NCBI RefSeq assembly: GCF_000372745.1
Contig: NZ_KB889697.1
Location: 62,001-126,000 of the forward strand
Direction of reading: 5' to 3'
Source of the DNA: Embleya scabrispora DSM 41855
GTDB lineage: Bacteria; Actinomycetota; Actinomycetes; Streptomycetales; Streptomycetaceae
Length of the DNA stretch: 64,000 nucleotides
The notes under the pieces were generated by a model. That model saw only the letters and a list, made by a program, of their open reading frames with translations, was not told the origin of the DNA and searched no databases. Positions 28,698 through 45,051 of the stretch are shown in pieces. The position numbers and the translations under genes are program-made. The number at the start of each line of letters is the position of its first letter. Within the stretch, counting starts at the first letter, position 1.

Positions 28698-30545
28698 TCA
28701 GAACAGGCCGGGCACCACCCCGTCCGGCGTGCCGACGAGGGCGATCCGGTCGAGGAAGGCGTTGTTCGTCTCGCAACTGGTCTCGGGAAGCAGGACGCAG
28801 GCGTGGCAGGCCGCGAGGTTGAGGCTGTCGGCGCCGCTCGCCGCTGTCTCGGAGCAGAGGGGGTCGTTGGAGCACCACGAGGCGCGGAGCAGCGCGGACT
28901 CCAGCGAGGAGGCGAGGCGCTCAGGTTCACCCTGGGCGACGATGCCACCGAGACTTCCTGCGGAGTCGCTGGTCGCCGTATAGATGAGGAAGCCGGCCAT
29001 CTCGTCGCCGATGTACAGGCGCTCGCGCAGGGACGCGGTCGGGTAGCCGCCGTCGAGGCTCCACTCGTTGATGAGCAGGTGCGCGAGCGTGTGCACCGCC
29101 AGGTGGCGGGGGGAGACCGGGGACGGCGGGACGGGCCGGTCGGAGTTGGCGTAGCGCTCCCGGAGTAGCGCCTCGTGGTTGAGTCGAACGCGCTCCGCGC
29201 GCTCCTGCGGCTGGGGTCGCCGCTCCCAGGCGGCGAGACGTTCCGGGTCGAGGCGGACGAAGACGCCCTCCCCGCTGACCTCGATGGCGGGCAGCCAGTC
29301 CGGCTTCCGGAGGGCGAGCGCGGCCCGGCGGGAACTGCTCGCGGGATCGCCGACGGCCGGCTCCTCGACCCGGGTGAAGGAGTGCAACGCGCGGATCTCA
29401 CGGACCCGCTTGACCAGCATGACCTGTCCGATGCCGTCCGGCGTCCGGTCACCGCCGGGCCGCTCGCAGACGAAGTCCTGGAGCTCGTCCCGCCGGCCCT
29501 CCGGACGCTCACGTTGGAGGGTCCGGTACTCCTCCCGGTAGAGGAGATCGCGCGGCGACAGCGTGGCGTGCTCCTCGGTCGGCTGCTCCGCCTCCGCTTC
29601 ACGGACCCGCAGTACGGCGGCGACCGCGTCGTCGACGGTCAGCCCCCGGTTCTTCTCCTCGAACTTCACCATCCTCAGGTAGGTGCGGATGTCGGCCTCG
29701 GCCCCGTCCTGGATGTTGCTCCAGTGGGGGCCGAGGGCCTTGAGCACGCCGTCGCTCCACGGTGGGATGGACAGGGCGGAGTGGACCACCGGGTACCACA
29801 CGGTGAAGGAACCGCGCTGGAGGGTGCGTGGCGGCTCGCCGCACTGCTGGACGGGGGCGTCCTTGAGCCAGGGGCGACGTCCGGTGCACCGGATGCCGAG
29901 GTCGCGGAGCGCCTGGCTGCGGAAGGCTCCCTCCATGGACACCTCCTTGGTGCCGCAGGTACAGCCGATGACGACACCGCGGAGGGAGGCCGTGGAGCCT
30001 TCGGCGCGCAGGCGCAGCTTGCCGCCGCACCGGCCCCCCGAGCCGGCCTCGCCCGGCTCGTAGGAGGAGGAACGGTGGACCCACTTCCAGTACGGGAAGT
30101 CGTCGAGGTGGCCGTTGACGCAGGCCATCACGAATCGGGACGGGACGAGGTCCCGTTCACAGGCGCCGCAGACCGCCTTGTCCTTCGGCGCGTTGAATTT
30201 CGCGTAGTACTGCAGCTCCCGGCACTCCGGGCACGAGTACAACTGCGGGAACCGGACGGCCCGCACCCCGTCACGGGCGTCCTCCGGGTCGCCGGCGGGC
30301 GGCAGTTTGAACTCGTGGACACCCGTCACCCTGGTGAGGCGGGGCTCCCAGAGGCTCCGGGTCCGGCTGACGTCCCAGGTGTCGAGCCCGGCGATCACGA
30401 AGGACTCGTTGTCGACCGCGATCAGGGAGCCGACGCCGTAGGTGGTGACGGCCTGGGCGCGGCGGATCTCGCCGAGCTTGCGCAGGCGTGTGATCGGCGC
30501 GCCGAGTCGGACGGTTCCTCGCTTGCGAGGGGACGGCGGGGTCAT
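28698..30545 (-). CDS. drmB: DrmB-like DUF1998 protein
   Basis: A 615-residue protein resembling DrmB of DISARM anti-phage systems. After an N-terminal segment with AVTTYGVGSLIAVDNESFVI, a zinc-ribbon-like region follows (YSCPECRELQYYAKF, VCGACERDLVPSRFVMACVN near residues 103-150). A second Cys pair occurs in IGCTCGTKEVS. The C-terminal DUF1998 part has HTLAHLLINEWSLDGG and a Cys cluster (ASWCSNDPLCSE, LAACHACVLLPETSC near 565-600). It is the last gene of the operon, and its ATG overlaps the DrmA-like stop by four bases (ATGA). In DISARM, DrmB partners DrmA in sensing and blocking incoming DNA. Confidence 0.85.
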   Translation of the reverse strand: MTPPSPRKRGTVRLGAPITRLRKLGEIRRAQAVTTYGVGSLIAVDNESFVIAGLDTWDVSRTRSLWEPRLTRVTGVHEFKLPPAGDPEDARDGVRAVRFPQLYSCPECRELQYYAKFNAPKDKAVCGACERDLVPSRFVMACVNGHLDDFPYWKWVHRSSSYEPGEAGSGGRCGGKLRLRAEGSTASLRGVVIGCTCGTKEVSMEGAFRSQALRDLGIRCTGRRPWLKDAPVQQCGEPPRTLQRGSFTVWYPVVHSALSIPPWSDGVLKALGPHWSNIQDGAEADIRTYLRMVKFEEKNRGLTVDDAVAAVLRVREAEAEQPTEEHATLSPRDLLYREEYRTLQRERPEGRRDELQDFVCERPGGDRTPDGIGQVMLVKRVREIRALHSFTRVEEPAVGDPASSSRRAALALRKPDWLPAIEVSGEGVFVRLDPERLAAWERRPQPQERAERVRLNHEALLRERYANSDRPVPPSPVSPRHLAVHTLAHLLINEWSLDGGYPTASLRERLYIGDEMAGFLIYTATSDSAGSLGGIVAQGEPERLASSLESALLRASWCSNDPLCSETAASGADSLNLAACHACVLLPETSCETNNAFLDRIALVGTPDGVVPGLF

Positions 30546-33500
30546 CGCTTCTCCAGGAAGAAGCTCGAGGAGGCGTCCACGTCGCGCAGGCTCCACAGCG
30601 TGGGCCAGCCCGTGCGACCCTCCGGGAGGTCGTTGTCGAAGGTACTGAGGAGAGCGGTCCTGCCACTCCTGGCGTGGGCCTCGTAGAGCAGGTTCGGATC
30701 GACGGCTGCGGCCTCGCGCCACCAGTCGACGAACTCGTCGAAGGCGGCGGCGGTGGCCTCGTGTTCCTGGGGCGCAACGCTCCCGACCCGCTCCAGCAGC
30801 GCGGCGCGAACGGCGCCGTTGACCTCGTCGACGTAGTCCTCGATCCGGGCCGCCGCCGCATTGTCGCGCGCACCCGGGACCATCAACCGCGCCAGGGCCA
30901 CGATCACGGCGTGCAGGCCGCGGTCGCGGGCACGCGCCGAGAAGGGCGTGACGCTGGTGGACTCGACCTCTCGGTAGAGGGCGGAGTGGAAGTGCTGGAA
31001 GCTCTCGTAGTGCGAACGGTCCCGGGAACGAGTCGAGTTGAGCATGACTGCAACCAGGCCCGGATGGCGTCGGCCGACCCGGCTGGTCGCCTGGATGTAC
31101 TCGGCGGTGGTCTGCGGCTGGCCCATGACCGCCATCAGGCCGAGGCGGTCGACGTCGACTCCGACGGAGATCATGTTCGTGGCGAGCAGGACGTCGGTGG
31201 TGTCCGGGGACGGGAACCTGCGCTCGATGTCCTTGAGGCGCCTGGGGATGTCGCTCGCGCTGGCCCTGCTGCTCAGCTCCGTCACCGCCTCGGGGTGGCG
31301 GGGCTTTTCGATGCCGTCGCGGGCGGCGAGTTGCTCCATCCGATCCTGCACGTCATCGAAGACCTGGAGTTCGGCGGCGGACAACAGCCGCAGGCTGTTG
31401 AAGTAGCCGACGAGGGTCCAGTAGGCGTCCTTGACCTCGTCGTCGGCGTCGCCGAGCTGGACCTGGTGCAGCAGGGCGGCGTAGGTACGGATCAGCAGGG
31501 TGGACTGGCTGGTGCTGGAGGTCAACAAGCCGATGTACCGGCGGGTGGCCTTGTCCTCGCGGGAGGCCTCGACCGCGAACCAGGAGTCACGGGAGTCGAG
31601 TCCGGCCGGCGGGAACTGGCAGACCTCGCGGTTGAAGAGGTGCAGGCCCTGCTCGTCGGCGCGCCGGATGGTCGCCGTGGACGCGATCACCTTGGGCCGA
31701 TTCGCCAGGATGTCCACCGCAGTCTCGTAGAGCCCGGTCAGGGTGCCGAGCGGGCCGGAAATGAGGTGGAGTTCGTCCTGAACGATCAGCTCCGGCGGCC
31801 TGGTCTCCTCCAGATCGCGGTTGAACAGCGCGGCCGTCCGATCCCGCCACGGCATGGAGGCGAACTTGTCGACGGTGGCGATGATCAGCGTCGGGTGTGC
31901 GGCATAGACGGAGTCGTCGACCAGGTGCACTGGGAGTCCGTCGCCGCGGTGGAACGCGCAGTCCGCGTCCGGGCAGTGGATGTACATGCGGTCGCGTTCC
32001 GGCGCGGCCTCGTAGTTAGAGGCGTCGAGGCGGCTGCCGCACCAGGGGCATGCCTGGAGCTGGACCGGGTTCTCCTTGTCGAGCGAACGTCCGCCGGTGC
32101 GTAAGGCATCCAGCTTCTCGCCGGCCGTCACCAGGTCATTCGGGGTCGCCGACTTCCCCACCCACATGCCGATGGAGATGCCCTCCCGTCCCAGCTCGTC
32201 CTCATTGCGGGAGCGGATCAGCTCCATGGCGCAGATCAGTGCGGTGGCGCGCTCGAACTGCTGGAGCGTCAGCAGTCGCAAGGTGTACCGCATCAGCACG
32301 GTGACACCGCCGCCGTGCACGGGGTCCTTGAGACGGCGCAGGAACGTGGTGAAGGCGATCAGGCCGAGGTATGCCTCGGTCTTGCCACCACCGGTGGGGA
32401 ACCAGAGCAGGTCGGCGACATCGCGATCGGGATGATCGTCCTCGACGATGCCCTGCAGGCAGAGCAGCAGGAAGCAGATCTGGAAGGGTCGCCAGTACTC
32501 CTTGCCTTCATCCGGTCCGGCGGCGGGCTTGCCCGCCTTAACCCAGGACGTGCGGGCGCGCTGCTCGGCCATGGCGCGGGTGGCCAGCTGGAACGCCCGC
32601 ATCGCGTGGGCGTGCGCGGGCTCGGAGAGCAGCGTGACGCCCACGCTCATGCGGGTGAGCGCCGTCTCGCACGCCTCGATCCGCTCCTGCGCGGCGGCCT
32701 CGTACTCGGTGCCGGCCAGGGTCTCCGCCTCGGCCTTGCGTTCGCCGATCCAGGCCCGGTAGCCGTCGAGGAGCGTGCCGAGCGCGTCCACCACCACCTT
32801 CGGGTCGGCGTCGCCGAGACTTCGCATGGAGAGCGCATCGACGGCGATGCCTCGGTTCGAGTCGGTCAGCAGCACCTCGTGAGTTGGCACGAACTCGGTT
32901 CGGACCTCTGCGACGGCGGCGCGCCCGGTGGTCGTGGCACCGATCGGCGGAGGCGTCCAGTCCCAGGCTGCCGCGCAACCGTGGCCGGTGGCGAAACCGG
33001 GGGCGTGCCGGTGGAGCAACCGGCTGAGCATCAACTCCCGGTCGTGGCTGCCGGAGGAGGCACGACGCTCGACGAAGGGCTCGGCGCCGGTCGTGAGTGC
33101 CCGGACCCGGAGGATGGACTGGTAGTAGCAGGCGGCGTCCTTCAGCGCCCGGGCGCCGAGCGTGCGGGTGTTGATCAGCGTGGCGGTGACGGTCACGGCG
33201 CCGTGCTCGCCTCTGGGACGTACCAGGACCCGGAGTTCCAGTCCCTCTGCGAGGGGCTGTCGGACCGTGGCCGGCGTCGTCACGTCCACCTCGACGTCGG
33301 CCAGGTCGAGCGGGATCCGGCGCCAGCGCTCGCGCTGTTCCCGGGTGCTGCGGGCCTCGACGCGCAAGGCCGCGACGGGGTTGCCCTCGGCGTCCTCGGG
33401 ACGGTAGACGGCGGCCGTGGTCTGTAGCACGATCCGCTCCGCCACCGTGGGGTCCACGGCGAAGGTGAGCCCCATGGAGGAGGGCCGCCGAATGTTGGCG

Positions 33501-33772
33501 AGCGAGACGCCGCGCTCGACGGCGTCCTCCTCGCCGTCGCCGCCGCGGACGAGGGTGGGAGAGTCGTCTCCGTCGGCCTCGTGGCCGTCTCGGTTGCCGC
33601 GGGCAACCTCGGGCGTCTCCTGAGGGAAAAGCACGCCGACCGGATACATCGTCACCGGCGCGTCGTCCTTGAGGATCTCCTCCTCACCACCGACGGGACC
33701 GAGGAGGTCCAGACGGAGGGCGGCACCGAGCCGATCGCGCAGGGCGTAGTAGTCGTGGATGGAGGGGCTCAT
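30542..33772 (-). CDS. drmA: DrmA-like SF2 helicase
   Basis: A 1076-residue helicase of the DISARM DrmA type. A long N-terminal domain of about 420 residues precedes the motor: motif I FPTGGGKTEAYLG (about 460), a CPWCGSRLDASNYE zinc-binding insert (about 575), motif II IVQDELHLISGPLG (about 664), motif III IASTATIRRA, and motif V-VI NMISVGVDVDRLGLMAVMGQ and IQATSRVGRRHPG (about 880-900). Length and insert agree with DrmA. The ATG overlaps the stop of the UvrD-like gene (ATGA) and its TGA overlaps drmB. All motor residues appear intact. Confidence 0.87.
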   Translation of the reverse strand: MSPSIHDYYALRDRLGAALRLDLLGPVGGEEEILKDDAPVTMYPVGVLFPQETPEVARGNRDGHEADGDDSPTLVRGGDGEEDAVERGVSLANIRRPSSMGLTFAVDPTVAERIVLQTTAAVYRPEDAEGNPVAALRVEARSTREQRERWRRIPLDLADVEVDVTTPATVRQPLAEGLELRVLVRPRGEHGAVTVTATLINTRTLGARALKDAACYYQSILRVRALTTGAEPFVERRASSGSHDRELMLSRLLHRHAPGFATGHGCAAAWDWTPPPIGATTTGRAAVAEVRTEFVPTHEVLLTDSNRGIAVDALSMRSLGDADPKVVVDALGTLLDGYRAWIGERKAEAETLAGTEYEAAAQERIEACETALTRMSVGVTLLSEPAHAHAMRAFQLATRAMAEQRARTSWVKAGKPAAGPDEGKEYWRPFQICFLLLCLQGIVEDDHPDRDVADLLWFPTGGGKTEAYLGLIAFTTFLRRLKDPVHGGGVTVLMRYTLRLLTLQQFERATALICAMELIRSRNEDELGREGISIGMWVGKSATPNDLVTAGEKLDALRTGGRSLDKENPVQLQACPWCGSRLDASNYEAAPERDRMYIHCPDADCAFHRGDGLPVHLVDDSVYAAHPTLIIATVDKFASMPWRDRTAALFNRDLEETRPPELIVQDELHLISGPLGTLTGLYETAVDILANRPKVIASTATIRRADEQGLHLFNREVCQFPPAGLDSRDSWFAVEASREDKATRRYIGLLTSSTSQSTLLIRTYAALLHQVQLGDADDEVKDAYWTLVGYFNSLRLLSAAELQVFDDVQDRMEQLAARDGIEKPRHPEAVTELSSRASASDIPRRLKDIERRFPSPDTTDVLLATNMISVGVDVDRLGLMAVMGQPQTTAEYIQATSRVGRRHPGLVAVMLNSTRSRDRSHYESFQHFHSALYREVESTSVTPFSARARDRGLHAVIVALARLMVPGARDNAAAARIEDYVDEVNGAVRAALLERVGSVAPQEHEATAAAFDEFVDWWREAAAVDPNLLYEAHARSGRTALLSTFDNDLPEGRTGWPTLWSLRDVDASSSFFLEKR

Positions 33773-35688
33773 GAGGGAAGTCGCTCCGTGTTGGAGTCGT
33801 CGAACGGGTCGGTCCAGTCGAAGCGGCCAAGGCCGCTGAGGCGGGGCGCGAGCCAGACTCCCGAGCTGCCGAGACCGGCACGCTCGGTCGCGACATCGCT
33901 GCCCGCGACGGTTTCGACGCAGTCGATGTGAAGACCGGTGATCCGGCCGGGGACGTTGTACTCGGACCGACTGCCGTCGCGGCTGAGCATCAGGTGCAGG
34001 GCGCGACGGAATGTCTCCGACACCTCGCCGACGGGGCGATCGTCATGGAGGACCGCATACGGCGGCGTCTGGTCCTCGCCCTCGGGCAGGCGGTGGAGCA
34101 GGGACAGCTCGACGGCATCGCCGGAGTGGACCCCGTGGGCGAGGTGTTGCTGAATCTCGACGGGGTCGGCTGCGATACTTCGCACGCCCGGCGGGTGCGC
34201 GCGGCAGACGTCGGGGCCGAGTGCCTCGATGCCGTTGCGGGCCCACGATCGGCTGCCTCCGATGTACCAACGGTCCAGACGCCTGTCCTTGCGGACCAGC
34301 CAGGTGTTGGGCCGGTCGAGTCGGTAGAGGTCGTCGCGAGGCCGGGTCATGGCGACGTAGAGGAGGCAGGCTTCCGCAGCCGGGTCGTAGTCGGCCTTCT
34401 TCTTGGCCACGTCCTTCGGACGTCTCAGCTCCACCGGCTCCACGACCAGGACGCGATCGAACTCCAGGCCCTTGGCACGGTGCACCGACGAGACGACCAG
34501 CGACGCCCGTTCGGTAGCCGTGAGCTCGTCGGGGAGCCGTCCCTCCGCCACAGCCAGGCGCAGCGCAGCGGGCTCGACCCGGCCACGCCGCTTGCCGGTG
34601 ACCCGCCGTACCGCTCGCGCGAGCATGGACGGATCCAGATCCGGCCGGGGGTCGAGGTCGGCGACCAGTTCGGCGAAGCGTTCCTCGGAGAGGTCCGCCG
34701 CATCGGTGGCGGCGAGTAGGCCGGCGATCCACGCGGGAGCGGGACGATCTCGGACGGAGCGCTGGAGCCGGTGGTCCACGCGGGCCGCGTGCAGGGTCTG
34801 GCTGACGGAGAGCGCCTGACCGTTGTCCCGGCACAGGATCGCGGTCGATCCGTCGAAGTACCGGAGCGAGTCCAGGACGAAGGCATCGTCCAGCGTGCCG
34901 AAGTGGGGAGCCTCGTCGAGCAGGAGTCGCAGCTCCCGGTAAATCTGCTCGGCCTGCGCCTCGGTCGGCTCCCACTCGGTGGCCGGCCGCTGCAACCGAG
35001 GGCCGTAAGGAAGGGCGACCCGGGCCTGCTCGGTGCGGGCTCGAAAGTTGTCGCCGAGGTGGATCTCGACCAGGTCCTCGGCGAACGAGCCACGGATCCA
35101 GTCGAAGAAGTAGTTCGTCTCCTGCGCCCGCTGGTCGGAGTCCGTGACCTGGAAGCCGTAGACGGCTTGGGCGCCGTCCCCGACCACGGTGAAGCCGCTC
35201 TGTTCCTGAAAGCGGTCGAGGAGCGCCTCGACCATCTCACGCCGCACCCCGACAAGGTCCTGGACCTCGTCGATCAGTACGTGGGCCGGGGCGCCGAACT
35301 CGCCCGCCTCGACCGCGCCCCTCTCGATGCCCTCGGTGGCGGCCCTGATGCGCTGGTCGAAGGTGGTCCCCGACCAGTCGCGGTCCGGATACGCCCGACG
35401 CAGCAGGGTGGCCGCCCATGAGTCGAAGGTCTGGGCGCGCACCCGACGGGCCGCGTCGGCTCGGCTCTCGACCTGCTCGCGCAGCTCGCGCACCGCGGCC
35501 CGGGAGAAGCTGAGGACGAGGATCTCGTGCGCCTCCAACTCCTCCCGTTCGACCAGCGCTTTCAGCCGGCAGACCAGGGTGTGCGTCTTGCCGGCGCCGG
35601 CGCCCGCCGTGACCAGGGTGCGGGTGTTCCACGGCTGGTCGACGACGGACCGCTGCGCCGGGGTGAGTGTGTGCTGCGGCTCGGTCAC
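33769..35688 (-). CDS. UvrD/Rep-like SF1 helicase of the defence operon
   Basis: A 639-residue superfamily 1A helicase. All motifs are seen: Q-motif region LTPAQRSVVDQPWNTRTLVT, motif I AGAGAGKTHTL (about 28-38), Ia FSRAAVRELREQV, II VLIDEVQDLVG, III VVGDGAQAVYGFQ, IV HLGDNFRARTE, V SVHRAKGLEFDRVLVVEP and VI LLYVAMTRPRDDLYRL. It is shorter than UvrD (about 720) and has a different C-terminal 150 residues. The GTG at 35688 forms a GTGA overlap with the preceding gene, the reason for choosing it over the in-frame GTG at 35703. Classical DISARM has an SNF2-type DrmD or DrmE instead, so this partner is a distinguishing feature. Confidence 0.85.
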   Translation of the reverse strand: MTEPQHTLTPAQRSVVDQPWNTRTLVTAGAGAGKTHTLVCRLKALVEREELEAHEILVLSFSRAAVRELREQVESRADAARRVRAQTFDSWAATLLRRAYPDRDWSGTTFDQRIRAATEGIERGAVEAGEFGAPAHVLIDEVQDLVGVRREMVEALLDRFQEQSGFTVVGDGAQAVYGFQVTDSDQRAQETNYFFDWIRGSFAEDLVEIHLGDNFRARTEQARVALPYGPRLQRPATEWEPTEAQAEQIYRELRLLLDEAPHFGTLDDAFVLDSLRYFDGSTAILCRDNGQALSVSQTLHAARVDHRLQRSVRDRPAPAWIAGLLAATDAADLSEERFAELVADLDPRPDLDPSMLARAVRRVTGKRRGRVEPAALRLAVAEGRLPDELTATERASLVVSSVHRAKGLEFDRVLVVEPVELRRPKDVAKKKADYDPAAEACLLYVAMTRPRDDLYRLDRPNTWLVRKDRRLDRWYIGGSRSWARNGIEALGPDVCRAHPPGVRSIAADPVEIQQHLAHGVHSGDAVELSLLHRLPEGEDQTPPYAVLHDDRPVGEVSETFRRALHLMLSRDGSRSEYNVPGRITGLHIDCVETVAGSDVATERAGLGSSGVWLAPRLSGLGRFDWTDPFDDSNTERLPS

Positions 35689-38210
35689 CTTTCCTCGTTC
35701 CACAGGTGGTCGAACCTGGTGAAGGCCAGCTCGCCCTGGTAGTTGATCACGTTGTCACGAACGTTGAGGATCAGGCAGGTCGACGTGCCATTGTTCTTCG
35801 GTCCTCGCAGACCGCGGCCGATCATCTGCTGATAGATGTTCGGACTGTAAGTGGGACGGGCGACGACGACCGCACGGGTGGCGGGGGCGTCGAAGCCCTG
35901 AGCGAGGACTCCGTAGTTGGTGAGCACCTTGATACGGCCCTTGCGGAAGTCCTCGATGCGCTTGCGGCGCTCGGGCACAGGCGTTGCCGAGTCGATGGCT
36001 GCAGCGCGGATCTGCCGGTCGTTCAGTTTGGCGGCCAGGAACTTGGCGTGTGCAACCGAGGTGGCGAAGACGAGGATCGGCCAGTCCGTCGGCAGGTTCT
36101 CGATCTCGTCGATGATGCGCAGGTTGCGGTCCTGGTCCTCGGCGAGGCGCTGCTCGGCACGCTTGGGCAGCACGCCGAACTTCTCCGAGCTGGAGACCTC
36201 GTCGGAACTCAGCCGAATCTCGGCCCCCAGGAGCTCGCGGTGCTTGACACGGGCCAGGACGCCGAGGTCTTGGAGTAGTCGGATGGCCTCGTTCTGGTCG
36301 CCGGCGAAGACGTCGAGGTCGAGGCGAGTGCCGAAGCGGCGCACCAAACGCAGGGTCAGGTCCTCGTTGTTGCGGTAGGGGGTGGCCGTCAGGCCTACCA
36401 GGTGGCGACGCGTCATCGGCGGGTTGACGCCAAGGTGCTCGAAGATTTCGCTGTAACGGGGGGAGGTGGCCCGGTGCGCCTCGTCGACGATGACCAGTGC
36501 GGCGTTCCGCAACCAGGCGTAGTCCTCGTGGCCGAGCACGCTCTGCAGTTTCGCGTCCGTGGCAACGACCAGGTGCGGCTCACCCGTCACCGGGGCGGCC
36601 TCGTTCGAGGACCAGAGGCGGCTGATGACCAGCGGCATCTCTGCCCCCACCTTGGACCAGACGAACCGCCAGCTCTGCACGGCCTGCTCGCACAGTTCCT
36701 CGCTCTCCGCGATCCACAGCACCGGCCCGGGAAGCTCGCCACGGTTTCGGATCCACCGAATCACGGCCTCGGAGGTGACGCGCGTCTTGCCGGCGCCGGT
36801 CGGGATGGACAGCATCCCGCGCTGCGGCACCGGGTTGTCCAGCAGCCGCTGGAGTGCCTGTGCCAGCTGTTCCTGGTATTCGTGCAGGGCGGGGAACTCG
36901 GATGGGCCCTCCACCTGGATGCGCGCCTCCAGCGGCGGCACCCGGGAGCCGGCGAACGAGTCGGGGAGCCCGAGGTCGGTGACGAACTTCAGTGCCTTGG
37001 CATCGCCGGTGAAGCTGCTCGGCGCGTTGCCGGGGAACGCGAGAGCCAGGTCCCGGCTGTGGATGCGGAGAATCTCCTCACCGTGGGAATTGAAGGCCAG
37101 TTCGGCGATTCGCCGGGCATCCGGCTGCTCACCGTCACGCTCGGCGACCTCACTGTCCAGAAGGCCCGGGGGCAGCTCGCTGCGCAGTTCCTCCTCGCCG
37201 ATCAACAGGGCGATCTTGTCGATGACGCTCTCGGCCTCGGCGATCTGCCGTAGTCGAGCGCGGGTCTTCCGGTCCTGCTCCTGACGTGCCTGGAGGTCCA
37301 GCACGCTTTTGCAGCCCTGGGGGCCGAGTTGCCAACCGAACTCCCGGTCGGCGGCCGTCAGGACGTCGAATGGGGAGAGCGTGTCGAGCACCAGCAGGGT
37401 CGACCCGTTGCGGGCCGAGGACAGCGGCTTCAGCTCCACGCCACGCGGCGTGCGGATTTCCTGCTCCAGCTCACCGCAGCGCTGGACCTTCCGGTTCTCC
37501 ACCGACTTGCCAAGGCGCTGACGCAGCGGAGAGAACTCGTCGACAAGCAGTGTCGGTCGGGTCGTCCCGGCCTTGCGGATCTGCTTGCTGATAACGTCCT
37601 CGACCTTGAGCATCCCCCACTGTTCGATCATCTGGGCCGCGGCCGCGGCATCGGCCCTGTCCGTGACCAGGAGGGCCGGGAGCTGCTCGCGGACGAGTTC
37701 GCCGAAGGCTGCCGCGGATGTTGCCACGACGATCTCCGTGTCGGGACGGACGCCCCAGGACTCACCCACGCGGCAGCGAGTCAGGATGCCCTCGGGGAAC
37801 TCCATGCCGACACGCAGCATCAGGGCGTAGGCGTGACCGATGAAGGCGTCGTCCTCGCTGACCAGCACCCGGCTCAGCAGAGCGTGCCAACGCTTCGCCG
37901 GCACTTCCTCCGGGGTGGCCGGCATGCGCAGCTTTCGGGCCTTCGACTCGGAGATGTCGATGACGACGGGGAGCACCTGCGCGTACGCCTTGAGCTGCGG
38001 GCCGACCGCCTCGCGCACGGAGGTCAGACCCAGCGAGGTGCGCACCAGGCCGTGCCTGCCGAGCATCCAGCGCAGCGGGGAGGCCACTTCGGTACGGCCG
38101 TTGGCGGAGGCGCTGTAGGCACGGGTCCAGCTCTCGACCACACCGACGTCCGGGATCGCGGCGACGAACGCGGCGCGGCCCTCCTCTGAGAGGCGCGGCA
38201 GCAGGTCCAA
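35685..38210 (-). CDS. C-terminal SF2 helicase part of the split ATPase-helicase
   Basis: 841 residues readable from a TTG near 38210, most likely the rest of the gene starting at 40444 after a frameshift. Residues 1-420 have no named domain and contain several charged helices. The motor follows: SIPTGAGKTRVTSEAVIRWI (motif I, about 460), VIVDEAHRATSPRY (DEAH, about 573), LVGLTATPYRNNEDL, ILVFATSVAHAKFLAAKLND, VLTNYGVLAQGFDAPATRAV and YQQMIGRGLRGPKNNG (motif VI). It is a type-I-restriction-R-like SF2 helicase. The stop overlaps the GTG of the UvrD-like gene. If expressed alone it would lack the GHKL domain. Confidence 0.75.
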   Translation of the reverse strand: MDLLPRLSEEGRAAFVAAIPDVGVVESWTRAYSASANGRTEVASPLRWMLGRHGLVRTSLGLTSVREAVGPQLKAYAQVLPVVIDISESKARKLRMPATPEEVPAKRWHALLSRVLVSEDDAFIGHAYALMLRVGMEFPEGILTRCRVGESWGVRPDTEIVVATSAAAFGELVREQLPALLVTDRADAAAAAQMIEQWGMLKVEDVISKQIRKAGTTRPTLLVDEFSPLRQRLGKSVENRKVQRCGELEQEIRTPRGVELKPLSSARNGSTLLVLDTLSPFDVLTAADREFGWQLGPQGCKSVLDLQARQEQDRKTRARLRQIAEAESVIDKIALLIGEEELRSELPPGLLDSEVAERDGEQPDARRIAELAFNSHGEEILRIHSRDLALAFPGNAPSSFTGDAKALKFVTDLGLPDSFAGSRVPPLEARIQVEGPSEFPALHEYQEQLAQALQRLLDNPVPQRGMLSIPTGAGKTRVTSEAVIRWIRNRGELPGPVLWIAESEELCEQAVQSWRFVWSKVGAEMPLVISRLWSSNEAAPVTGEPHLVVATDAKLQSVLGHEDYAWLRNAALVIVDEAHRATSPRYSEIFEHLGVNPPMTRRHLVGLTATPYRNNEDLTLRLVRRFGTRLDLDVFAGDQNEAIRLLQDLGVLARVKHRELLGAEIRLSSDEVSSSEKFGVLPKRAEQRLAEDQDRNLRIIDEIENLPTDWPILVFATSVAHAKFLAAKLNDRQIRAAAIDSATPVPERRKRIEDFRKGRIKVLTNYGVLAQGFDAPATRAVVVARPTYSPNIYQQMIGRGLRGPKNNGTSTCLILNVRDNVINYQGELAFTRFDHLWNEER

Positions 38211-40444
38211 GGGGCCGGCCGGTGGGGCCCCTCCAGGACGAGCCGGCTGATGTTCGTCCGCGGGGCGTCCGGGGCGAGCAGGCGCAGGTAGTGGTTGTGC
38301 ACCGCCTGCCGGTACTCCTCGAACCAGGACTGCTGCTTCGGGTCGTGAGCGACGACGGGCCGGTCGACCAGGCCGAGATCGCGGAACATCGCGGTGTCCG
38401 CGCCGTGGAAGTCCATGTCCACGGCGATCGAGGCGTCCCTACTGCGGTCCCCGGGCACGACGACTCCCGGCAGCAGGCACGAGGCCATGGGTCGGAAGCG
38501 TCCGTCGACCGTGCGGACGTGAAGCACGGCACGAGCGTCCGGGTAGCGGCTGCGGATGCGGTCTACCTGGGCGTTGCCGCCCGCGCTGCGCAGCAGCATC
38601 CAGAACTGGGTCCACAGTTGCGGGGTGTAGCCTCCGAAACCCTGGTCGAGCACGCCCTGGAAGCGGCCGTGGGCATCGGCGATCCGGATGCCGACGGTGT
38701 GCAGGTGGCGCTGCATCTCCATCCGTTCGGAGATGGCCGTGTGCACGTAGACCATGTCGTCGCGGAGCTCGTCGGCACCGGTGCGGTGGAAGACCTTGCC
38801 TGCGACCGGGGCCACCATTCCGTGGGCGTCGGTCAGCACGATGCGGGCGCTGCGCGCGGCCTCCAGCGTCTCCTGATCGCCGTTGCGCTCCACCATCGCT
38901 GCGAGGATGCGGATCGCGTGAGCGGACGACTCGGCGGTGCCGTCCGAGACCAGTGCCTCCAGCCAGGTGCGGACGCCTTCCGGCGACTTCCTGGCCGCCG
39001 ACAGGATGTGCTCCATCTTGCCGTGGCGCAGCGGGTTGGCATCGACCGAGGGGTGCACCCAGTCGCGCGGGCGACCAGGGTACTCGGCCCAGATGCGCAG
39101 CCATTCCGGCTGCAGCTTCTCGGGGTGGATGTGCAGGTCCCGGGGGACGCGGAGCACGCCGTCCTGGTCGGGCAGGGACGGCAGCTGCGCGGCGGCCTCC
39201 CAGACGTGGCGGATGAAGTACTCCTCCGCCCAGTTCACGGCTTCCCTGGAGCGGCCGGGCAGGAGCGGCAGGCAGGCGGCGGGATCCTCCTTGCGGGACA
39301 ACCGGGGCAGGGAGGAGACCACCACACGGGCCGCGACCCGGAGCAGTTCACGGTTGAAGGCGCTGCCGTCGAGGAGGTTCTGCCGGTCCTCGTTGGTCTT
39401 CCACGCCGCGTTCAAATAACCCGTCACGGAGACCGGGTACTTGGTGGGGAAGTAGGACCAGAACTGGCCGCGCCCAAGGGGCACCGTCAGCAACCCGTCC
39501 TTCTCGACGTAGGCGGGAACCGCCCATGAGACATTGATGACGCTGCGGTCGTGCAGTTCGCCGGCGCTACCACGGGCCTCAGTGGTGGGCTCGTGGGCAA
39601 CCGTGAAGACGTTCCACTCGCTCACCGTCTCCTTGATCCCCGTGCCGACCTCACGGATGACCCGCCGCTCACCGGAGACCTGCACCGTCAGCTTGCGGCG
39701 CTGGATGGGGAGCCGACGCCGGTCCTCCAGCAGCACTTCGCCGACGTGTGAGGAAAAGATCTGGAAGCCGGAAGGGAAGGCGTCGGTCTGGTGACCGTCG
39801 CTGTGCTTGAAGCCGGTGATGTCGTGCCCCAAGCGCTCGGCAGCCCCCGGCAGCAGGGGGAGTTTGACCACGGTGGTCGCCCAGGCCAGGAGCTCCCGCA
39901 GGACGTTGTCCTTGTCGAGCTCCTCCTCTCGGTCGAGGGGACGGGCCATCCGGAGCACCGGGGTGTCCATGTCGAGGGGCTGCTGGAGTCCAAGAGCCTC
40001 GGCGATCCGGTCCGTGGACCAGGCCCGGTCGAAGCCGAAGCATCCGCCGGCGCTGAAGAACTGGGGCGCGTCGGTCACCGACAGCACTGACTTCACGCCG
40101 ACGCCGAAGCGGCCGATCTGGCCGCCGCGCTTGCGGGAGACACTCATACGCAGGATCGTGTCGGCGCCTTCCGGGGTGACCGGAGTGCCCTGGTTGGCGC
40201 AGTAGAGCGTGTCGTCGGTCAGCACCACGGCCAGGCGGCCGCCGGGTTCATTGGCGATCTCATCGGCGCCGTTTTGAACGAGTTCGAACAACTGACGCTC
40301 GCCGTATCCGCCCTGCGTGATCCGCAGCTCGCCGTTGGCGTGCTCCTGCACGAGGCCGGGATCCACGCGATAGGTCTCCAGGGTGCGGGTCGATTGCTCC
40401 AGTACCGTTTGAATCACCAAGGCATCCGAACCCCGCGACAACAT
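38024..40444 (-). CDS. N-terminal GHKL (sacsin/Hsp90-like) ATPase part of the split gene
   Basis: First gene of the defence operon. Residues 51-63 (QLFELVQNGADEI) and 111-119 (GRFGVGVKS) are the N-box and G-box of a GHKL/Hsp90-type ATP site, as in sacsin-like proteins; LYCANQGTPV lies between them. Later residues (about 330-400) keep the Hsp90-like middle segment (SVTGYLNAAWKTNEDRQNLL). The family-like reading ends at TNISRLVLEG near 38233. Beyond it the frame reads an improbable Cys/Arg/Pro-rich tail, while the neighbouring frame continues as good protein. An added G in the G4 run at 38228-38231 would join both parts into one protein of about 1580 residues. ATG at 40444 is the most plausible start. 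Confidence 0.72.
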   Translation of the reverse strand: MLSRGSDALVIQTVLEQSTRTLETYRVDPGLVQEHANGELRITQGGYGERQLFELVQNGADEIANEPGGRLAVVLTDDTLYCANQGTPVTPEGADTILRMSVSRKRGGQIGRFGVGVKSVLSVTDAPQFFSAGGCFGFDRAWSTDRIAEALGLQQPLDMDTPVLRMARPLDREEELDKDNVLRELLAWATTVVKLPLLPGAAERLGHDITGFKHSDGHQTDAFPSGFQIFSSHVGEVLLEDRRRLPIQRRKLTVQVSGERRVIREVGTGIKETVSEWNVFTVAHEPTTEARGSAGELHDRSVINVSWAVPAYVEKDGLLTVPLGRGQFWSYFPTKYPVSVTGYLNAAWKTNEDRQNLLDGSAFNRELLRVAARVVVSSLPRLSRKEDPAACLPLLPGRSREAVNWAEEYFIRHVWEAAAQLPSLPDQDGVLRVPRDLHIHPEKLQPEWLRIWAEYPGRPRDWVHPSVDANPLRHGKMEHILSAARKSPEGVRTWLEALVSDGTAESSAHAIRILAAMVERNGDQETLEAARSARIVLTDAHGMVAPVAGKVFHRTGADELRDDMVYVHTAISERMEMQRHLHTVGIRIADAHGRFQGVLDQGFGGYTPQLWTQFWMLLRSAGGNAQVDRIRSRYPDARAVLHVRTVDGRFRPMASCLLPGVVVPGDRSRDASIAVDMDFHGADTAMFRDLGLVDRPVVAHDPKQQSWFEEYRQAVHNHYLRLLAPDAPRTNISRLVLEGPHRPAPWTCCRASQRRAAPRSSPRSRTSVWSRAGPVPTAPPPTAVPKWPPRCAGCSAGTAWCAPRWV

Positions 40445-42240
40445 CTGATCGCTCAAGATCCAACTGCTTCCTGCCCGGCATGACCCCGGGCCGAGTATCA
40501 AGATGAACATTGACGGAAAACAGAAGAGCTGCACACTTACCGGAGATGTGGAGCGTCGATCCCTCAAGGTCACCCGTGTCGACAACAGCCGGAGCCGGCC
40601 CTACTTTTCGGACGGCATGATGACAATCCTAACGAGGGGAGTATCGGGACGCCCCCATAACCCAAGCCCACGACCGTCGTTGGAACTGCGTCGTCCCGGA
40701 CCGGTGGCGGCGAACCTCGCCGCGAAGGAGCGGATCCGTAGCGCCCGAACGCGAACTGCCTTACGCTCGGAGCCGACTCGTGACCGTCGTGCCCCGACGT
40801 CGAACTTCCTTCCGCCTGCGACGTATTGATCGAGTATCGCTGCCCGCGGGCAGCACTCCGCCGCCGTTCGCAAGCTGCAACATCGCCCTTCAGCCCTCAC
40901 GCGTGATCCCGATTGCGCCGAGGAACGCTGAACGCGGATACGGGTCCATGGAGTTGCAGTCCTCTGGATTGACGACAGGATGTCGTCGTCGCCGGCGGCA
41001 AGCAGGGGCACGGCAGCCCCTACGGCACGGCGAAGTCGAACAACATCCATGGAACAGGGAAGAGAAGGTGCGCTGGTCTCGCGGCGAGGCTCATCCGCGT
41101 TGGGTGGCGCTCAGTCCAGTGCGCAGCCGAACAGGACACCCGATTTATGCAATTGCCGCACAAGGGTGCGCCGAAGGGAGCCCACAAATACCTCAACCGG
41201 CCTGCTGCCCACGAGATCCAACGGCAAGTCAGCCATACCGCTGGACGGCGAGGTCGACACCACCGGGGGCATGGTCTCTGCGCGTGCGCGTCGCCGTCCC
41301 GCAGCAGGACGACCCTTGGCGCCTCTCGTCGATCGCCTGCTTCGGCTCCGCGCCCGTCGCCTCGGACAGTCTCCCCGACGGCCCCGGCGACGGCACCGTC
41401 CCCACCGCGTCCGTCGACACCGTCACCCACCTCTTCGAGGACATCGACGCGGACCTGCGTCGGCTCCGCGATCGAGGTCGCGCGTCCGTGCCGATCGGGT
41501 GACACCGAACCATCCTCGCCGCGCGCCCACCGCGGCGCACGCCGGTGCCCCCTCCTTCCGAAGGAACCCGAGGGATTCGCACTCCTCAGCGAACCGGTCA
41601 TCGAGAGGACCGACTCGTCGCGCTCCCCGTCAGCCTCCCGACCGAAGCAGGAATCCCGGCGGGACACATTCTTGCTACGCGGCGAGGCGGAAGCCTTGCT
41701 CGTAAGTCGAGCACGCCGTCGTGCGCCGGGTCGACTCATACAACGAGGCACGGCTGCTCTCCGCCGTTGGACAACACCTCAACATCGGGGTCGCACTCCG
41801 ACGCCCGATGCGCGCACGCGTCGGCCACCATGTGGCCACCGCCGTGATCCTCAGGATCGCCAACCTGGCGATCCAGGACACCTGGCGGACAGAACGCCGG
41901 CGAACGCCCGCCCGACACCGACGACACGGACCGGACCTTCGTCGAGGCAGACGACCCAAGCACCCTCGAAGCCGGTCACACCTCCGACCATCGCCGGACG
42001 CCCGCCAGTAAGCGGCCGAACGGCCGGCCCCACATACGGACCGAGGGCCCCGGCCGCCCCAGGCCACGGGGCCCTTCGGCATGCCCATCTCACAAGGGCA
42101 CACACCGCCAAACCCACCGGCCACCCGCCGACCCCACGCACCAGCACGAATACGCCCGGAGAAGCCGAAATCCCGCCCGACCTCAACGGTCGAAACGGGA
42201 TCTCGTCAATTCAACTCGGGCCATCTCAAGAACGGCCCGT
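40445..42240. other. Gene-free, degenerate right end of the island
   Basis: About 1.8 kb without a gene I can support. The first 200 bases should contain the promoter of the defence operon. Elsewhere, open frames on both strands lack domain character. Isolated protein-like scraps (for example SGVLFGCAL near 41110-41140 on the minus strand) sit in different frames. This fits decayed integrase or transposase DNA beside an attachment site, but no family can be named. Confidence 0.4.
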
Positions 42241-42254
42241 TTGTGTCCGAGGGG
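42241..42254 (+). repeat. Right att-like direct repeat in the tRNA 3' end
   Basis: TTGTGTCCGAGGGG overlaps the last 11 bases of the tRNA-Leu gene plus 3 flanking bases. It is identical to 28637-28650 in the same orientation. Confidence 0.6.
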
Positions 42255-42327
42255 GGACTTGAACCCCCAAGCCCTTTCGGGCACTAGCACCTCAAGCTAG
42301 CGCGTCTGCCAATTCCGCCACCCGGAC
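42244..42327 (-). tRNA. tRNA-Leu (anticodon GAG)
   Basis: 84 bases that fold as a class II tRNA. The acceptor GTCCGGG pairs with CTCGGAC with one G-T pair, and the discriminator is A. The D-arm is GCG...CGC. The anticodon stem CTAGC/GCTAG holds the loop TTGAGGT, giving anticodon GAG. A long variable arm (GCCC GAAA GGGC) and a T-stem GGGGG/CCCCC with TTCAAGT loop complete it. CCA is not encoded. The 3' end is used as an apparent integration site by the neighbouring island. Confidence 0.95.
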
Positions 42328-42517: not shown

Positions 42518-42691
42518 ATGCAGCTCGGCAGGCCGGTGGCGACGGGTGTGGTCGTGGAGCGGGCGGCGCGGATCGAGGAGGAGCGGGGGCGTGAGATGGC
42601 GGCTCCCGAGGCGAAGCAGGATCGAGGGGGCGAGCCGCGGGCCTCGGGGGCGACTGAGGTGGAGGTGCCGTCGGGGGTCGCCGGGCGATGA
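42518..42691 (+). CDS. Small hypothetical protein (57 residues), coupled to the next gene
   Basis: ATG at 42518 with a strong GGGAGGGG ribosome site about seven bases upstream. The 57 residues (starting MQLGRPVATGVVVERAARIE) are charged, rich in Glu, Arg and Gly, with no membrane segment and probably largely helical or disordered. The TGA overlaps the ATG of the next gene (ATGA), so the two are translationally coupled. I do not recognise the family. Confidence 0.55.
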   Translation: MQLGRPVATGVVVERAARIEEERGREMAAPEAKQDRGGEPRASGATEVEVPSGVAGR

Positions 42692-43344
42692 TCGGCCGGC
42701 GGCGGCTGCCCGAGGAGCGGCCGGACGTCGCGCCCGTGGGGTACAAGGTCGCGTCGCTGTTGTTGTCGGTGGACGGTGATCGGGCGAGCTTCGCCGGCGT
42801 GTCGATCGGACGCGGCCGGGCGTACGACGTCGAGGCCGAGGCTCGCTGTGCGTACGGGCGCCGGCATCGGCCGCCCGCGGCCCGCTGCGATTGCGGGTTC
42901 TACTGCCTGACGGCCGAGGCGGATGCGCGCGGGCTGCTGTGCGTCACCGAGTATCGGCACGCGGCGCTGCTCCGGGTGGACGTGCTGGGCAGCTATATCC
43001 GCTTCGAGCGCGGCTTCCGGTACAGCAGGCAGCGGGTCACCTCGGTGTGGGTCGGGGCCTGCGGGTGTGGCAATCCGGCCGAGTTGCTGGTCGACGCGGG
43101 GACGGGGATCGTGGGCCGGCGCGGCCTGGTCGGCAGTTGTACCGGGTGTGCGGCCGGGCGGGTGGGTCTGTCGTTCGGGTCGTACGCGCGCCTGGCCGGG
43201 GTGCCGGTCGCCGCCGACGCCAATCCCTACGTACGCGGCGAGTACGAGCTCGTGCCGCAGCTCATCGCCGAGGTCACCCTGCTCCAGGCCCGGCTCGACC
43301 GCTGTCAGGAGCAGCTCGGCCGGCTCCTCGGGTCGGATTCCTGA
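42688..43344 (+). CDS. Hypothetical cysteine-containing protein
   Basis: A 218-residue protein with several Cys pairs: ARCDCGFYCL (about 70), GACGCGNPAEL (about 127) and GSCTGCAAGRV (about 150), suggesting one or two structural metal sites. The C-terminal 25 residues form a helix (IAEVTLLQARLDRCQEQLG) of coiled-coil character. No known domain is recognised. It starts in an ATGA overlap with the 57-residue gene. It lies between the tRNA and the monooxygenase gene and seems to be a conserved actinobacterial protein of unknown role. Confidence 0.65.
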   Translation: MIGRRRLPEERPDVAPVGYKVASLLLSVDGDRASFAGVSIGRGRAYDVEAEARCAYGRRHRPPAARCDCGFYCLTAEADARGLLCVTEYRHAALLRVDVLGSYIRFERGFRYSRQRVTSVWVGACGCGNPAELLVDAGTGIVGRRGLVGSCTGCAAGRVGLSFGSYARLAGVPVAADANPYVRGEYELVPQLIAEVTLLQARLDRCQEQLGRLLGSDS

Positions 43345-43485
43345 CGGGGGGCCGCTCGGCGTGCGGCAGTGGCTCGGTCCGGTCACCGTCGCCGGTCGAC
43401 TGATCGGGATCTCGATCGTGGTCGACCCCACGGGCCGATCGGGAAGCATCTCCCGCTCCCACCTGTTCTCGCCCGTGTGAGCGAG

Positions 43486-44838
43486 ATGGTGAGTACCAGG
43501 GCGACATCGACCGGGTCCGCGACCGCGGGGGCTCCCCCGCGCACCGAGCGCCGCGCCGGCCCCGCACCGCGATCCGCCTCGGCGCGACCCACCGACTCCC
43601 CGACGCACGGGGGCGTCCTGGACGTCGTGGTGATCGGCGCCGGCCAGGCGGGCCTGTCCGCGGCCTACCACCTGCGCCGCTCCGGCCAGTCCTTCGTCGT
43701 GTTGGACGCCGACGAGGCGCCGGGCGGGGCCTGGCGGCACCGGTGGCCCACGCTCCTGATGGAGGCCGTGCACGGGATCCACGAACTGCCGGGCCTGCCG
43801 GTTCCGGAAATCGACCCGGCGCGGCCCGCGTTCGAGGCGCTGCCCGAGTACTTCGCGACGTACGAGCGCGCCTTCGGCCTGGACATCGTGCGCCCGGTCA
43901 CGGTGACGGCCGTGCGCTCGACATCGGCCGCTCCGACGGCTCGGAGCGCTCCGGCGCCCCGCACCGGCACCGCCGGCTCCCCTGCCGGCCGGTCGCCGGA
44001 GACCGACGCCGGCCCAGCACCCGATTCGACCGGGCCTGATTCGACCGCGCCCGATTCGAGCGCGCCCGCTCCGGCCGCACCCGAAAGCTCCCCCGCCGAT
44101 CTGCTGGTCGTCGAGACCGACCGGGGCGCCTGGACCGCCCGCGCGCTGATCAACGCGACCGGGACGTGGCGCCACCCGTTCATCCCCTTCTATCCGGGCG
44201 CCGCCGAGTTCCGCGGCCGGCAGTTGCACACCGCGGACTACCGCGGGCCGGCCGAGTTCGCGGGGCAGCACGTGGTCGTGGTGGGCGGCGGTACGTCCGC
44301 CATCCATGCGCTCGCCGAGATCGCCGAGGTCGGCACCACGACCTGGGTGACCCGTCGACCGCCGGTGTTTCGCGACGGCGAGTTCAGTGCCGAGGTCGGG
44401 CGGTCCGCGGTGGCCCGGGTGGAGGAGCGGGTCCGGGCCGGGCTGCCGCCGGAGAGCGTGGTGGCGGTGACCGGGCTGCCGCCGACGGCTGCGGTGCGCG
44501 CCGCGCGAGAGCACGGGGTGCTGACGCGACTGCCGATCTTCGATCGCATCACCGCTCTCGGTGTCGCGTGGAACGACGGTTCCTCGGTACCCGCCGACGC
44601 CATCCTGTGGGCGACCGGATTCCGCGCGGCGCTGCGCCACTTGGCACCGCTGGACCTGCGCGAGCCTGGCGGCGGAATTCGGATGGAGGGTACACACACC
44701 GCGCGCGACCCGCGCATCCACCTTGTGGGGTACGGTCCTTCGGCGAGCACGATCGGCGCCAATCGGGCCGGCCGGGCCGCCGTGCACGATCTGAAAGCAC
44801 TGCTCTCCACCAGGAGCACCGCTCACATCGCGGCCTGA
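43486..44838 (+). CDS. Flavin-dependent monooxygenase (FMO/BVMO-like)
   Basis: A 450-residue FAD/NADPH enzyme. After a disordered N-terminus of about 45 residues comes GAGQAGLSAAYHLRRSGQSF (FAD site) and GGAWRHRWPTLLMEAVHGIH. Further on are ALINATGTWRHPFIPFYPGA, VVVVGGGTSAIHALAEIAEV (NADPH site) and ILWATGFRAALRHLAPL. This is the layout of single-component flavin monooxygenases that oxidise small molecules or are CzcO-like. Residues about 148-205 are an Ala/Pro/Ser insertion with PDST repeats, which is unusual inside this fold. It precedes a terpene synthase gene by 213 bases and could oxidise its product. ATG at 43486 chosen; GTG at 43477 is possible. Confidence 0.8.
   Translation: MVSTRATSTGSATAGAPPRTERRAGPAPRSASARPTDSPTHGGVLDVVVIGAGQAGLSAAYHLRRSGQSFVVLDADEAPGGAWRHRWPTLLMEAVHGIHELPGLPVPEIDPARPAFEALPEYFATYERAFGLDIVRPVTVTAVRSTSAAPTARSAPAPRTGTAGSPAGRSPETDAGPAPDSTGPDSTAPDSSAPAPAAPESSPADLLVVETDRGAWTARALINATGTWRHPFIPFYPGAAEFRGRQLHTADYRGPAEFAGQHVVVVGGGTSAIHALAEIAEVGTTTWVTRRPPVFRDGEFSAEVGRSAVARVEERVRAGLPPESVVAVTGLPPTAAVRAAREHGVLTRLPIFDRITALGVAWNDGSSVPADAILWATGFRAALRHLAPLDLREPGGGIRMEGTHTARDPRIHLVGYGPSASTIGANRAGRAAVHDLKALLSTRSTAHIAA
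44020..44064 (+). repeat. Three 15-bp tandem repeats inside the monooxygenase gene
   Basis: Three in-frame units encode PDSTG, PDSTA and PDSSA. They form part of a low-complexity insertion in the flavoprotein. Confidence 0.7.
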
Positions 44839-45051
44839 CCCGGGCCGTCCGCAAGCCGTGCACACAGCACCGCACGGCCCGCACACGCACCACCGCAAAC
44901 GCCCGCACACGATTCACCGCACGTCCCCATAAAAACGCATCACCGTACGTGTCGAAGCGCCCGTCGACGTCACTCTCCGCACACGCAAAGGATCTTGCGC
45001 CGGCGACGCCGATGCGGCATAACAATGATCACGCAACGGGTGGGAGACCAG

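What the first reader, a model, noticed from the sequence alone, without database searches (positions are those of the whole stretch)
28698..40444. DISARM-related defence operon without visible DrmC or methyltransferase
Four proteins in one overlapped minus-strand operon: GHKL (sacsin-like) ATPase fused to an SF2 helicase, UvrD-like helicase, DrmA-like helicase, DrmB-like DUF1998 protein. Known DISARM systems, as I recall them, keep drmA-drmB-drmC plus a DNA methylase and an SNF2 helicase or DrmE. Here drmC (PLD nuclease) and any methylase are absent and two other motors take their place. How self DNA is spared without a methylase is then an open question. I cannot exclude that this arrangement is already catalogued.
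Basis: partly seen in the sequence, partly recalled or inferred. Interest (0 to 1): 0.87.

Follow-up and report, generated by a model that had tools for sequence, protein, structure and literature searches.

The report
Stripped copy of a DISARM-like defence
A bacterial chromosome carries the motor half of a phage-defence system related to DISARM; most close relatives also carry DNA-marking and DNA-cutting genes beside it, so this copy looks like a worn remnant of an apparently unnamed, widespread variant.

Summary
In detail: a tight minus-strand operon encodes a sacsin-type GHKL ATPase followed by a RadD-like SF2 helicase, a UvrD-like helicase, DrmA and DrmB, with no DrmC or C5-methylase found in the window. 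But the missing methylase belongs to this copy, not to the system. Of 40 DrmA relatives, 39 have GHKL-SF2 and UvrD; 37 a divergent XRE-HTH gene (GHKL-like by motif); 39 a C5-cytosine methyltransferase close by; 34 a Vsr-like endonuclease; none DrmC or DrmD. In the window the methylase/Vsr arm is missing, a C-terminal scrap of the XRE gene remains (41,266-41,358, E 8e-6), and the GHKL-SF2 gene, one frame in 38 of 38 relatives, is split near 38,220 (assembly error not excluded). The copy lies by a tRNA-Leu whose end is a synteny breakpoint in the genus. The unit passes cut-offs for DrmA and DrmB but fails DISARM's DrmC/DrmD features; it resembles a MORC-type restriction-modification system combined with DrmAB. 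One type of its methyltransferases lacks the catalytic cysteine in 26 of 26 ORFs. I found no text describing this combination. New variant of a known kind; this copy is probably decaying.

The parts
28698..30545 (-). DrmB (DUF1998/MZB), about 615 aa; ORF open to 30722
   Evidence: NF038324 473 bits, cut-off 240; PDB 7s9v_B E 4e-78
30542..33772 (-). DrmA, YprA-family SF2 helicase, 1076 aa, with an acidic loop in the place of the Serratia trigger loop and V1065 at the place of V1296
   Evidence: NF038325 1007 bits, cut-off 950; PDB 7s9v_A E 6e-179
33769..35703 (-). UvrD-like SF1 helicase, 644 aa, no nuclease seen
   Evidence: PF00580, PF13361; AlphaFold model pLDDT 86.7, first PDB matches UvrD/Rep/PcrA, GajB at rank 25
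35685..38233 (-). RadD-like SF2 helicase part of the GHKL-SF2 gene, with about 430 N-terminal residues that matched no family
   Evidence: NF053632 RadD 114 bits, below cut-off 720; model pLDDT 87.8, first PDB match RadD 6jde
38205..38235 (-). place where the frame changes between the GHKL and SF2 parts, in a G/C-rich run; intact copies exist in relatives
   Evidence: one frame in 38 of 38 relatives
38224..40444 (-). sacsin-type GHKL ATPase part of the GHKL-SF2 gene (related to TmtA of PADLOC)
   Evidence: NF047352 65.6 bits; PADLOC TmtA E 1e-36
40888..41358 (+). C-terminal scrap of the divergent XRE-HTH gene that stands here in 37 of 40 relatives
   Evidence: tblastn 51% over 35 aa, E 7.7e-6 for one query, expected place and strand; weaker match 40888-41349, E 7e-4
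42243..42327 (-). tRNA-Leu (gag); its 3' end is a breakpoint of synteny in the genus

Best explanation
The operon is the motor/sensor half of a DISARM-like defence whose other half, in relatives, is a C5-methylation and Vsr-nuclease arm plus a divergent XRE-HTH gene (GHKL-like by motif). Proposed working of the complete system (inferred): the active C5-methyltransferase, with its cysteine-less partner, marks host DNA. DrmAB, with the UvrD-like helicase, loads on exposed 5'-ended single-stranded or unmarked phage DNA and translocates. The GHKL-SF2 protein acts as an ATP-gated clamp and motor, as MutL works with UvrD and Vsr, and licenses cutting by the Vsr-like endonuclease. The XRE protein controls or senses. 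Shown here: gene content, order, motifs, conservation. Inferred: every functional step. In the window the marking and cutting arm is gone, the XRE gene is truncated and the GHKL-SF2 gene is split, so this copy is most likely a recently broken remnant near a tRNA-Leu hotspot.
For: 40 relatives found with DrmA: GHKL-SF2 39, UvrD 39, DrmA 40, DrmB 40, XRE gene 37, C5-MTase 38 by tblastn plus L036 by PF00145, Vsr 34, DrmC 0, DrmD 0. 16 further loci from a survey of 394 Actinomycetes genomes: UvrD 14, DrmA/B 15, C5-MTase 12, Vsr 7, XRE gene 6 of 16. Remnant of the XRE gene at the expected place and strand. GHKL-SF2 in one frame in 38 of 38. MT-B has GGPPCQ in 22 of 22 ORFs (one gene seen twice), MT-A lacks the Cys in 26 of 26. 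DrmA keeps a loop and V1065 that correspond to the trigger loop and V1296 of Serratia DrmA. Right flank conserved in 3 of 3 genus mates, left flank not.
Against: The frame change could be an assembly error: it lies in a G/C run. Apart from it the coding stretches are open; changes at positions invariant in relatives (53 of 1275, against 22 of 1244 in L003 and 15 of 1237 in L011) are about in line with the longer branch (0.377 against 0.177 and 0.184), so long neglect is not shown. L101 has the core on a contig of 299,964 bases without any PF00145 match, and for L106 the genome's only match is about 20 kb away, beside a second copy, L105, so the core may sometimes do without. The genome of the window has three other C5-MTases with intact PCQ, two beside Vsr genes, that could serve in trans. 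Nothing shows that MTases, Vsr and motors form one machine; neighbourhood is the only link. In the wider sample Vsr and the XRE gene are in fewer than half of the loci.
Confidence: 0.6

Rival explanations
1. A complete, working, methylase-free DISARM-like system: self DNA is spared because DrmAB is held shut by its trigger loop and opens only on 5'-ended single-stranded DNA; two extra motors replace DrmC and methylase.
For: DrmA keeps a loop at the trigger-loop place; the DISARM structure paper argues for structure-based discrimination and calls DrmC dispensable (passages of PMC9142583). Coding stretches otherwise well conserved. L101 and L106 show the core without a near C5-MTase.
Against: C5-MTase beside the unit in 39 of 40 relatives; remnant of a lost partner gene; split GHKL-SF2 frame.
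Confidence: 0.15
2. The frame break is a sequencing or assembly error and the copy is active, with methylation and Vsr supplied by unlinked genes of the same genome.
For: Three unlinked C5-MTases with PCQ, two beside Vsr genes; the Vsr on contig C47 is 73% identical to a Vsr of the system. The frame change lies in a G/C run.
Against: Those MTases are about 25-32% identical to MT-A or MT-B in their best stretches and the one on C25 lies in what looks like another R-M unit; the XRE gene is truncated whatever the frame.
Confidence: 0.15
3. The unit is not defence but a DNA-repair operon (RadD, UvrD and YprA/MrfA kin are repair helicases).
For: SF2 part is closest to RadD, UvrD part to UvrD/Rep.
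Against: DrmA and DrmB pass DISARM family cut-offs; patchy presence (17 of 394 genomes hold a full-length GHKL-SF2, own included); C5-MTase and Vsr neighbours; strain-specific flank at a tRNA.
Confidence: 0.07

Closest known systems
DISARM (class 1 and class 2)
   Same: DrmA and DrmB are members by family model; C5-methyltransferases accompany the unit in relatives
   Different: No DrmC or DrmD in 56 relatives' loci or the window; no MmeI- or PglX-type methylase in 77 actinomycete stretches or the window; GHKL-SF2 and UvrD instead. DrmE was not searched
DISARM-like cassette linked to McrBC (mentioned in Bell et al. 2024, PMC11090510, passages read)
   Same: On R. rhizogenes plasmid pC5.7d: C5-MTase, a hypothetical gene, a DUF2357 gene (McrC by recollection), Vsr, UvrD, DrmA-like, DrmB-like, NERD in a row
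   Different: Here GHKL-SF2 stands where the DUF2357 pair stands there; no hit of that McrC-type protein in 77 actinomycete stretches or the window. That this plasmid is the cassette Bell meant is my inference
MORC/paraMORC restriction-modification systems (Iyer et al. 2008, PMC2292703, parts 1 and 2 of 4 read)
   Same: GHKL ATPase, SF2 helicase, cytosine methylase, Vsr nuclease; MutL-UvrD-Vsr logic
   Different: No DrmA/DrmB named in the parts read; the GHKL here is sacsin/TmtA-like
ARMADA type II (Bell et al. 2025, PMC12458937, abstract, sections 3, 5, 7, 8, 26 and passages read)
   Same: A YprA helicase with a UvrD-type helicase, an SF2 helicase and a methyltransferase
   Different: ARMADA has a PglX-like methylase, a BrxHII-like helicase and a fused DUF1998; here DrmA and DrmB are separate and the methylase is C5
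Tiamat (TmtA)
   Same: N-terminal GHKL region matches TmtA models (E 1e-36)
   Different: Here fused to a RadD-like helicase and in an operon; that TmtA means Tiamat, a single-gene system, is recalled

Membership tests
DISARM | DrmA | tested here: met
   NF038325 1007 bits over cut-off 950
DISARM | DrmB | tested here: met
   NF038324 473 bits over cut-off 240
DISARM | DrmC PLD nuclease in the unit | tested here: not met
   tblastn with 4 DrmC: none in window, none in 40 and 16 loci. [quoted passage not shown]
DISARM class 1 | DrmD and DrmMI | tested here: not met
   no DrmD, MmeI- or PglX-type hit in window or 77 actinomycete stretches; no DrmD in 56 loci
DISARM class 2 | DrmMII (C5-methylase) | tested here: not met
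   none found in window or on its contig; C5-MTases lie by 39 of 40 relatives; the best PADLOC match of the one MT-A scanned is DruM2, DrmMII lower
DISARM class 2 | DrmE | not tested
   no DrmE query was run
ARMADA | PglX and BrxHII with a fused DUF1998 | tested here: not met
   DUF1998 is a separate gene; no PglX hit
MORC/paraMORC R-M system | GHKL, SF2 helicase, C5-MTase, Vsr together | tested here: not met
   window lacks MTase and Vsr; of 40 relatives 34 have Vsr and 39 a C5-MTase
Tiamat | stand-alone TmtA along its whole length | tested here: not met
   positions 47-596 of a 1782-position model matched by residues 88-615
any defence system | protection against phage | not testable with these tools
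   needs an experiment

The most novel reading that the evidence does not exclude
The GHKL-SF2/UvrD/DrmA/DrmB core can act on its own, here and in rare others (L101, L106), as a methylation-free DISARM-like defence that tells phage DNA by its 5'-ended single strands; the C5-MTase pair, with its conserved cysteine-less member, and Vsr are then an add-on restriction layer rather than the source of self-recognition.
Probability: 0.15. Interest if true: 0.75.

Novelty: new variant of a known kind. Interest (0 to 1): 0.5.

Why it matters
The GHKL-SF2 gene that marks this unit is present in full in 17 of 394 sampled Actinomycetes genomes (own included). The complete unit joins DISARM's DrmAB to the GHKL/C5-methylase/Vsr logic of MORC-type restriction systems. 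It offers a candidate for DISARM's missing nuclease (Vsr-like), a conserved cysteine-less methyltransferase partner, and natural copies with and without the methylation arm, which makes the question of how DISARM spares self DNA directly testable.

Tried and rejected
Methylase-free system as the general rule: rejected after PF00145 hits appeared beside nearly every relative. The divergent gene as a methylase: it is an XRE-HTH plus a region that Pfam does not name; that region is GHKL-like only by my reading of its motifs (a profile against the PDB gave HTH matches and one short unrelated one; PADLOC gave PDC-M33A, of no stated function). A hidden nuclease in the UvrD or SF2 part: two AlphaFold models and the 50 listed Foldseek matches of each showed helicases and translocases, with modest TM-scores; this is weak evidence of absence. 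Strong relaxed selection in the window copy: not shown once branch length is weighed. Programmed frameshifting: not pursued, since 38 of 38 relatives keep one frame. Neighbouring aldo/keto reductase: a related gene also lies by DrmB in Cellulomonas L040 (47%), taken as chance. Ten searches of papers listed no paper that I recognised as describing this combination; I read passages or sections of a few only, most subscription papers are not held and no supplement was read.
Full report
What is there. The minus-strand operon at 28,698-40,444 is real. DrmA and DrmB pass NCBIfam's cut-offs and match the solved Serratia DrmA and DrmB. The UvrD-like protein matches PF00580 and GajB models, but its predicted structure is closest to UvrD, Rep and PcrA. 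The SF2 part is RadD-like, below the RadD model's cut-off. The GHKL part matches the sacsin N-terminal domain and PADLOC TmtA. No nuclease was seen in these proteins by these searches.

A frame break. In the window the GHKL part is read in one frame and the SF2 part in another; the change lies in a G/C-rich run near 38,220. In 38 of 38 relatives both parts are in one stop-to-stop frame. In the class survey 17 full-length copies outside this genome were found in 16 genomes, 16 without a stop and one with a TGA. Sequencing error in the window cannot be excluded.

Relatives. A DrmA search, which reaches close relatives only, gave 40 loci. In one search, 37 of 40 show all five parts in the same order above 100 bits. 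With upstream stretches added, 39 of 40 have GHKL-SF2 and UvrD, 40 DrmA and DrmB; for L031 the upstream part was taken from a second contig of the same genome, presumed to be the other half. 37 of 40 have a divergent gene of about 710 aa with an XRE helix-turn-helix. Contig lengths agree for every upstream stretch except L060, the L031 case. C5-MTases lie upstream of the XRE gene, upstream of GHKL-SF2 (L036, L037), or downstream of DrmB, in 39 of 40; L040, which has DrmA and DrmB alone, has none. By tblastn at 60 bits the count is 38, L036 being added by PF00145. Vsr-like genes (over 60 bits): 34 of 40. DrmC and DrmD: 0 of 40.

A wider sample. Of 394 Actinomycetes genomes 21 match the GHKL-SF2 alignment at E up to 1e-40; 17 hold a full-length copy, counting this genome's two pieces as one. 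Seventeen loci were fetched; L092 repeats L030, leaving 16. Of 16: UvrD 14, DrmA and DrmB 15, C5-MTase 12, Vsr 7, XRE gene 6, DrmC 0, DrmD 0. L095 is cut off by the start of its contig. L105 has a C5-MTase about 4 kb downstream. L101 has none on its contig of 299,964 bases, and for L106 the genome's only match lies about 20 kb off, beside L105; upstream of L106 stand genes of another kind (HEPN, DUF4011, MTES_1575, DUF3320). L108 has no UvrD hit and its DrmA falls outside the clade described next.

DrmA tree. In a tree of 31 DrmA proteins the actinomycete GHKL-SF2/UvrD group, with Tsukamurella L086 and L040, forms a clade with local support 0.999, apart from four operons that carry drmD and drmC. 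Class 2 DISARM was not included and the root is a midpoint.

The methyltransferase pair. Among ORFs picked by similarity to four of these proteins, MT-B keeps the motif IV GGPPCQ in 22 of 22, and MT-A lacks the cysteine in 26 of 26: 22 read GLPRV, four read otherwise. L065 and L092 are two views of one MT-B gene. The 19 upstream stretches and less similar C5-MTases (for example those of L036, L037, L100, L102-L104) were not in this count. A cysteine-less C5-MTase should not methylate (chemistry of the family, recalled); its conservation suggests a partner or target-recognition role (inference).

The window's losses. tblastn with the relatives' proteins finds no MTase or Vsr in the window, and the genome's three C5-MTase genes lie on contigs C47, C144 and C25, not on C136. 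A scrap of the XRE gene's C-terminal part is left at 41,266-41,358, with a weaker match from 40,888. The five coding stretches show 53 changes at 1275 positions invariant in the streptomycete relatives, against 22 of 1244 in L003 and 15 of 1237 in L011, with branch lengths 0.377, 0.177 and 0.184; two of the 53 sit at the frame break itself. So the core was under constraint until recently. Three other genomes of the genus were held; in them the GHKL protein finds only short matches of 38% identity. From the tRNA-Leu on, the right flank is conserved in 3 of 3, in one of them from 42,055. Over the 7 to 15 kb compared, the left side is shared by two of them, different in the third and different again here. 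The tRNA end thus looks like a hotspot.

Mechanism. From passages read, Serratia DrmAB is shut by a trigger loop, opens on 5'-overhang DNA, and may sense methylation through V1296; DrmC is dispensable. The window's DrmA has a loop there and V1065 in the place of V1296. Iyer et al. (parts 1 and 2 of 4) argue that GHKL ATPases work with SF2 helicases, methylases and Vsr nucleases as MutL does with UvrD and Vsr. A Vsr-like protein that triggers a damage response in cells lacking cytosine methylation is reported in Caulobacter (abstract; its authors offer a repair accident as the cause). I combine these: methylation marks self, DrmAB and UvrD load on unmarked or broken phage DNA, the GHKL-SF2 clamp licenses Vsr. 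All of this is inference.

Known or new. On plasmids a UvrD-DrmA-DrmB trio also stands with C5-MTase, Vsr and a DUF2357 gene (R. rhizogenes) or with C5-MTase, Vsr and an MvaI/BcnI-type endonuclease (Rhizobium). Bell et al. 2024 mention a DISARM-like system with McrBC (passages), and Bell et al. 2025 speak of many uncharacterised DISARM-like classes (figure legend). So the kind is known; the GHKL-SF2 version with the XRE gene, a paired C5-MTase and Vsr was in no text that I found.

Noticed in passing
G000 contig C25, L084 7656-13671: C5-MTase (PCQ), Vsr and a gene that reads like a MORC/MutL-type GHKL ATPase in one row: apparently a separate restriction-modification unit (the GHKL label is mine).
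   Followed up: partly
G000 contig C47, L085 8079-9605: A C5-MTase and Vsr pair; the Vsr is 73% identical to one of the system's Vsr proteins.
   Followed up: partly
L047, L051, L054 and one more upstream stretch: Two genes upstream of the Vsr/MTase arm in 4 of the 20 upstream stretches; by my recollection they look like the Z1 and GHKL genes of Mza.
   Followed up: no
L040: Cellulomonas composti: DrmA and DrmB alone, no GHKL-SF2, UvrD or C5-MTase near.
   Followed up: no
L091, L115: Two operons with drmD and drmC (class 1 type) also have a C5-MTase and Vsr beside them, so the Vsr/C5 arm may be a common DISARM companion.
   Followed up: no
window 42688-46173: Right of the tRNA: a gene with no Pfam match, a flavin-type oxidoreductase and a terpene synthase, in a stretch conserved in the genus.
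   Followed up: no
L105, L106: One genome (G333) holds two copies of the core about 40 kb apart; a NERD-domain helicase gene stands about 6 kb upstream of the L105 copy, divergent from it, and the L105 DrmB matches in two pieces.
   Followed up: no
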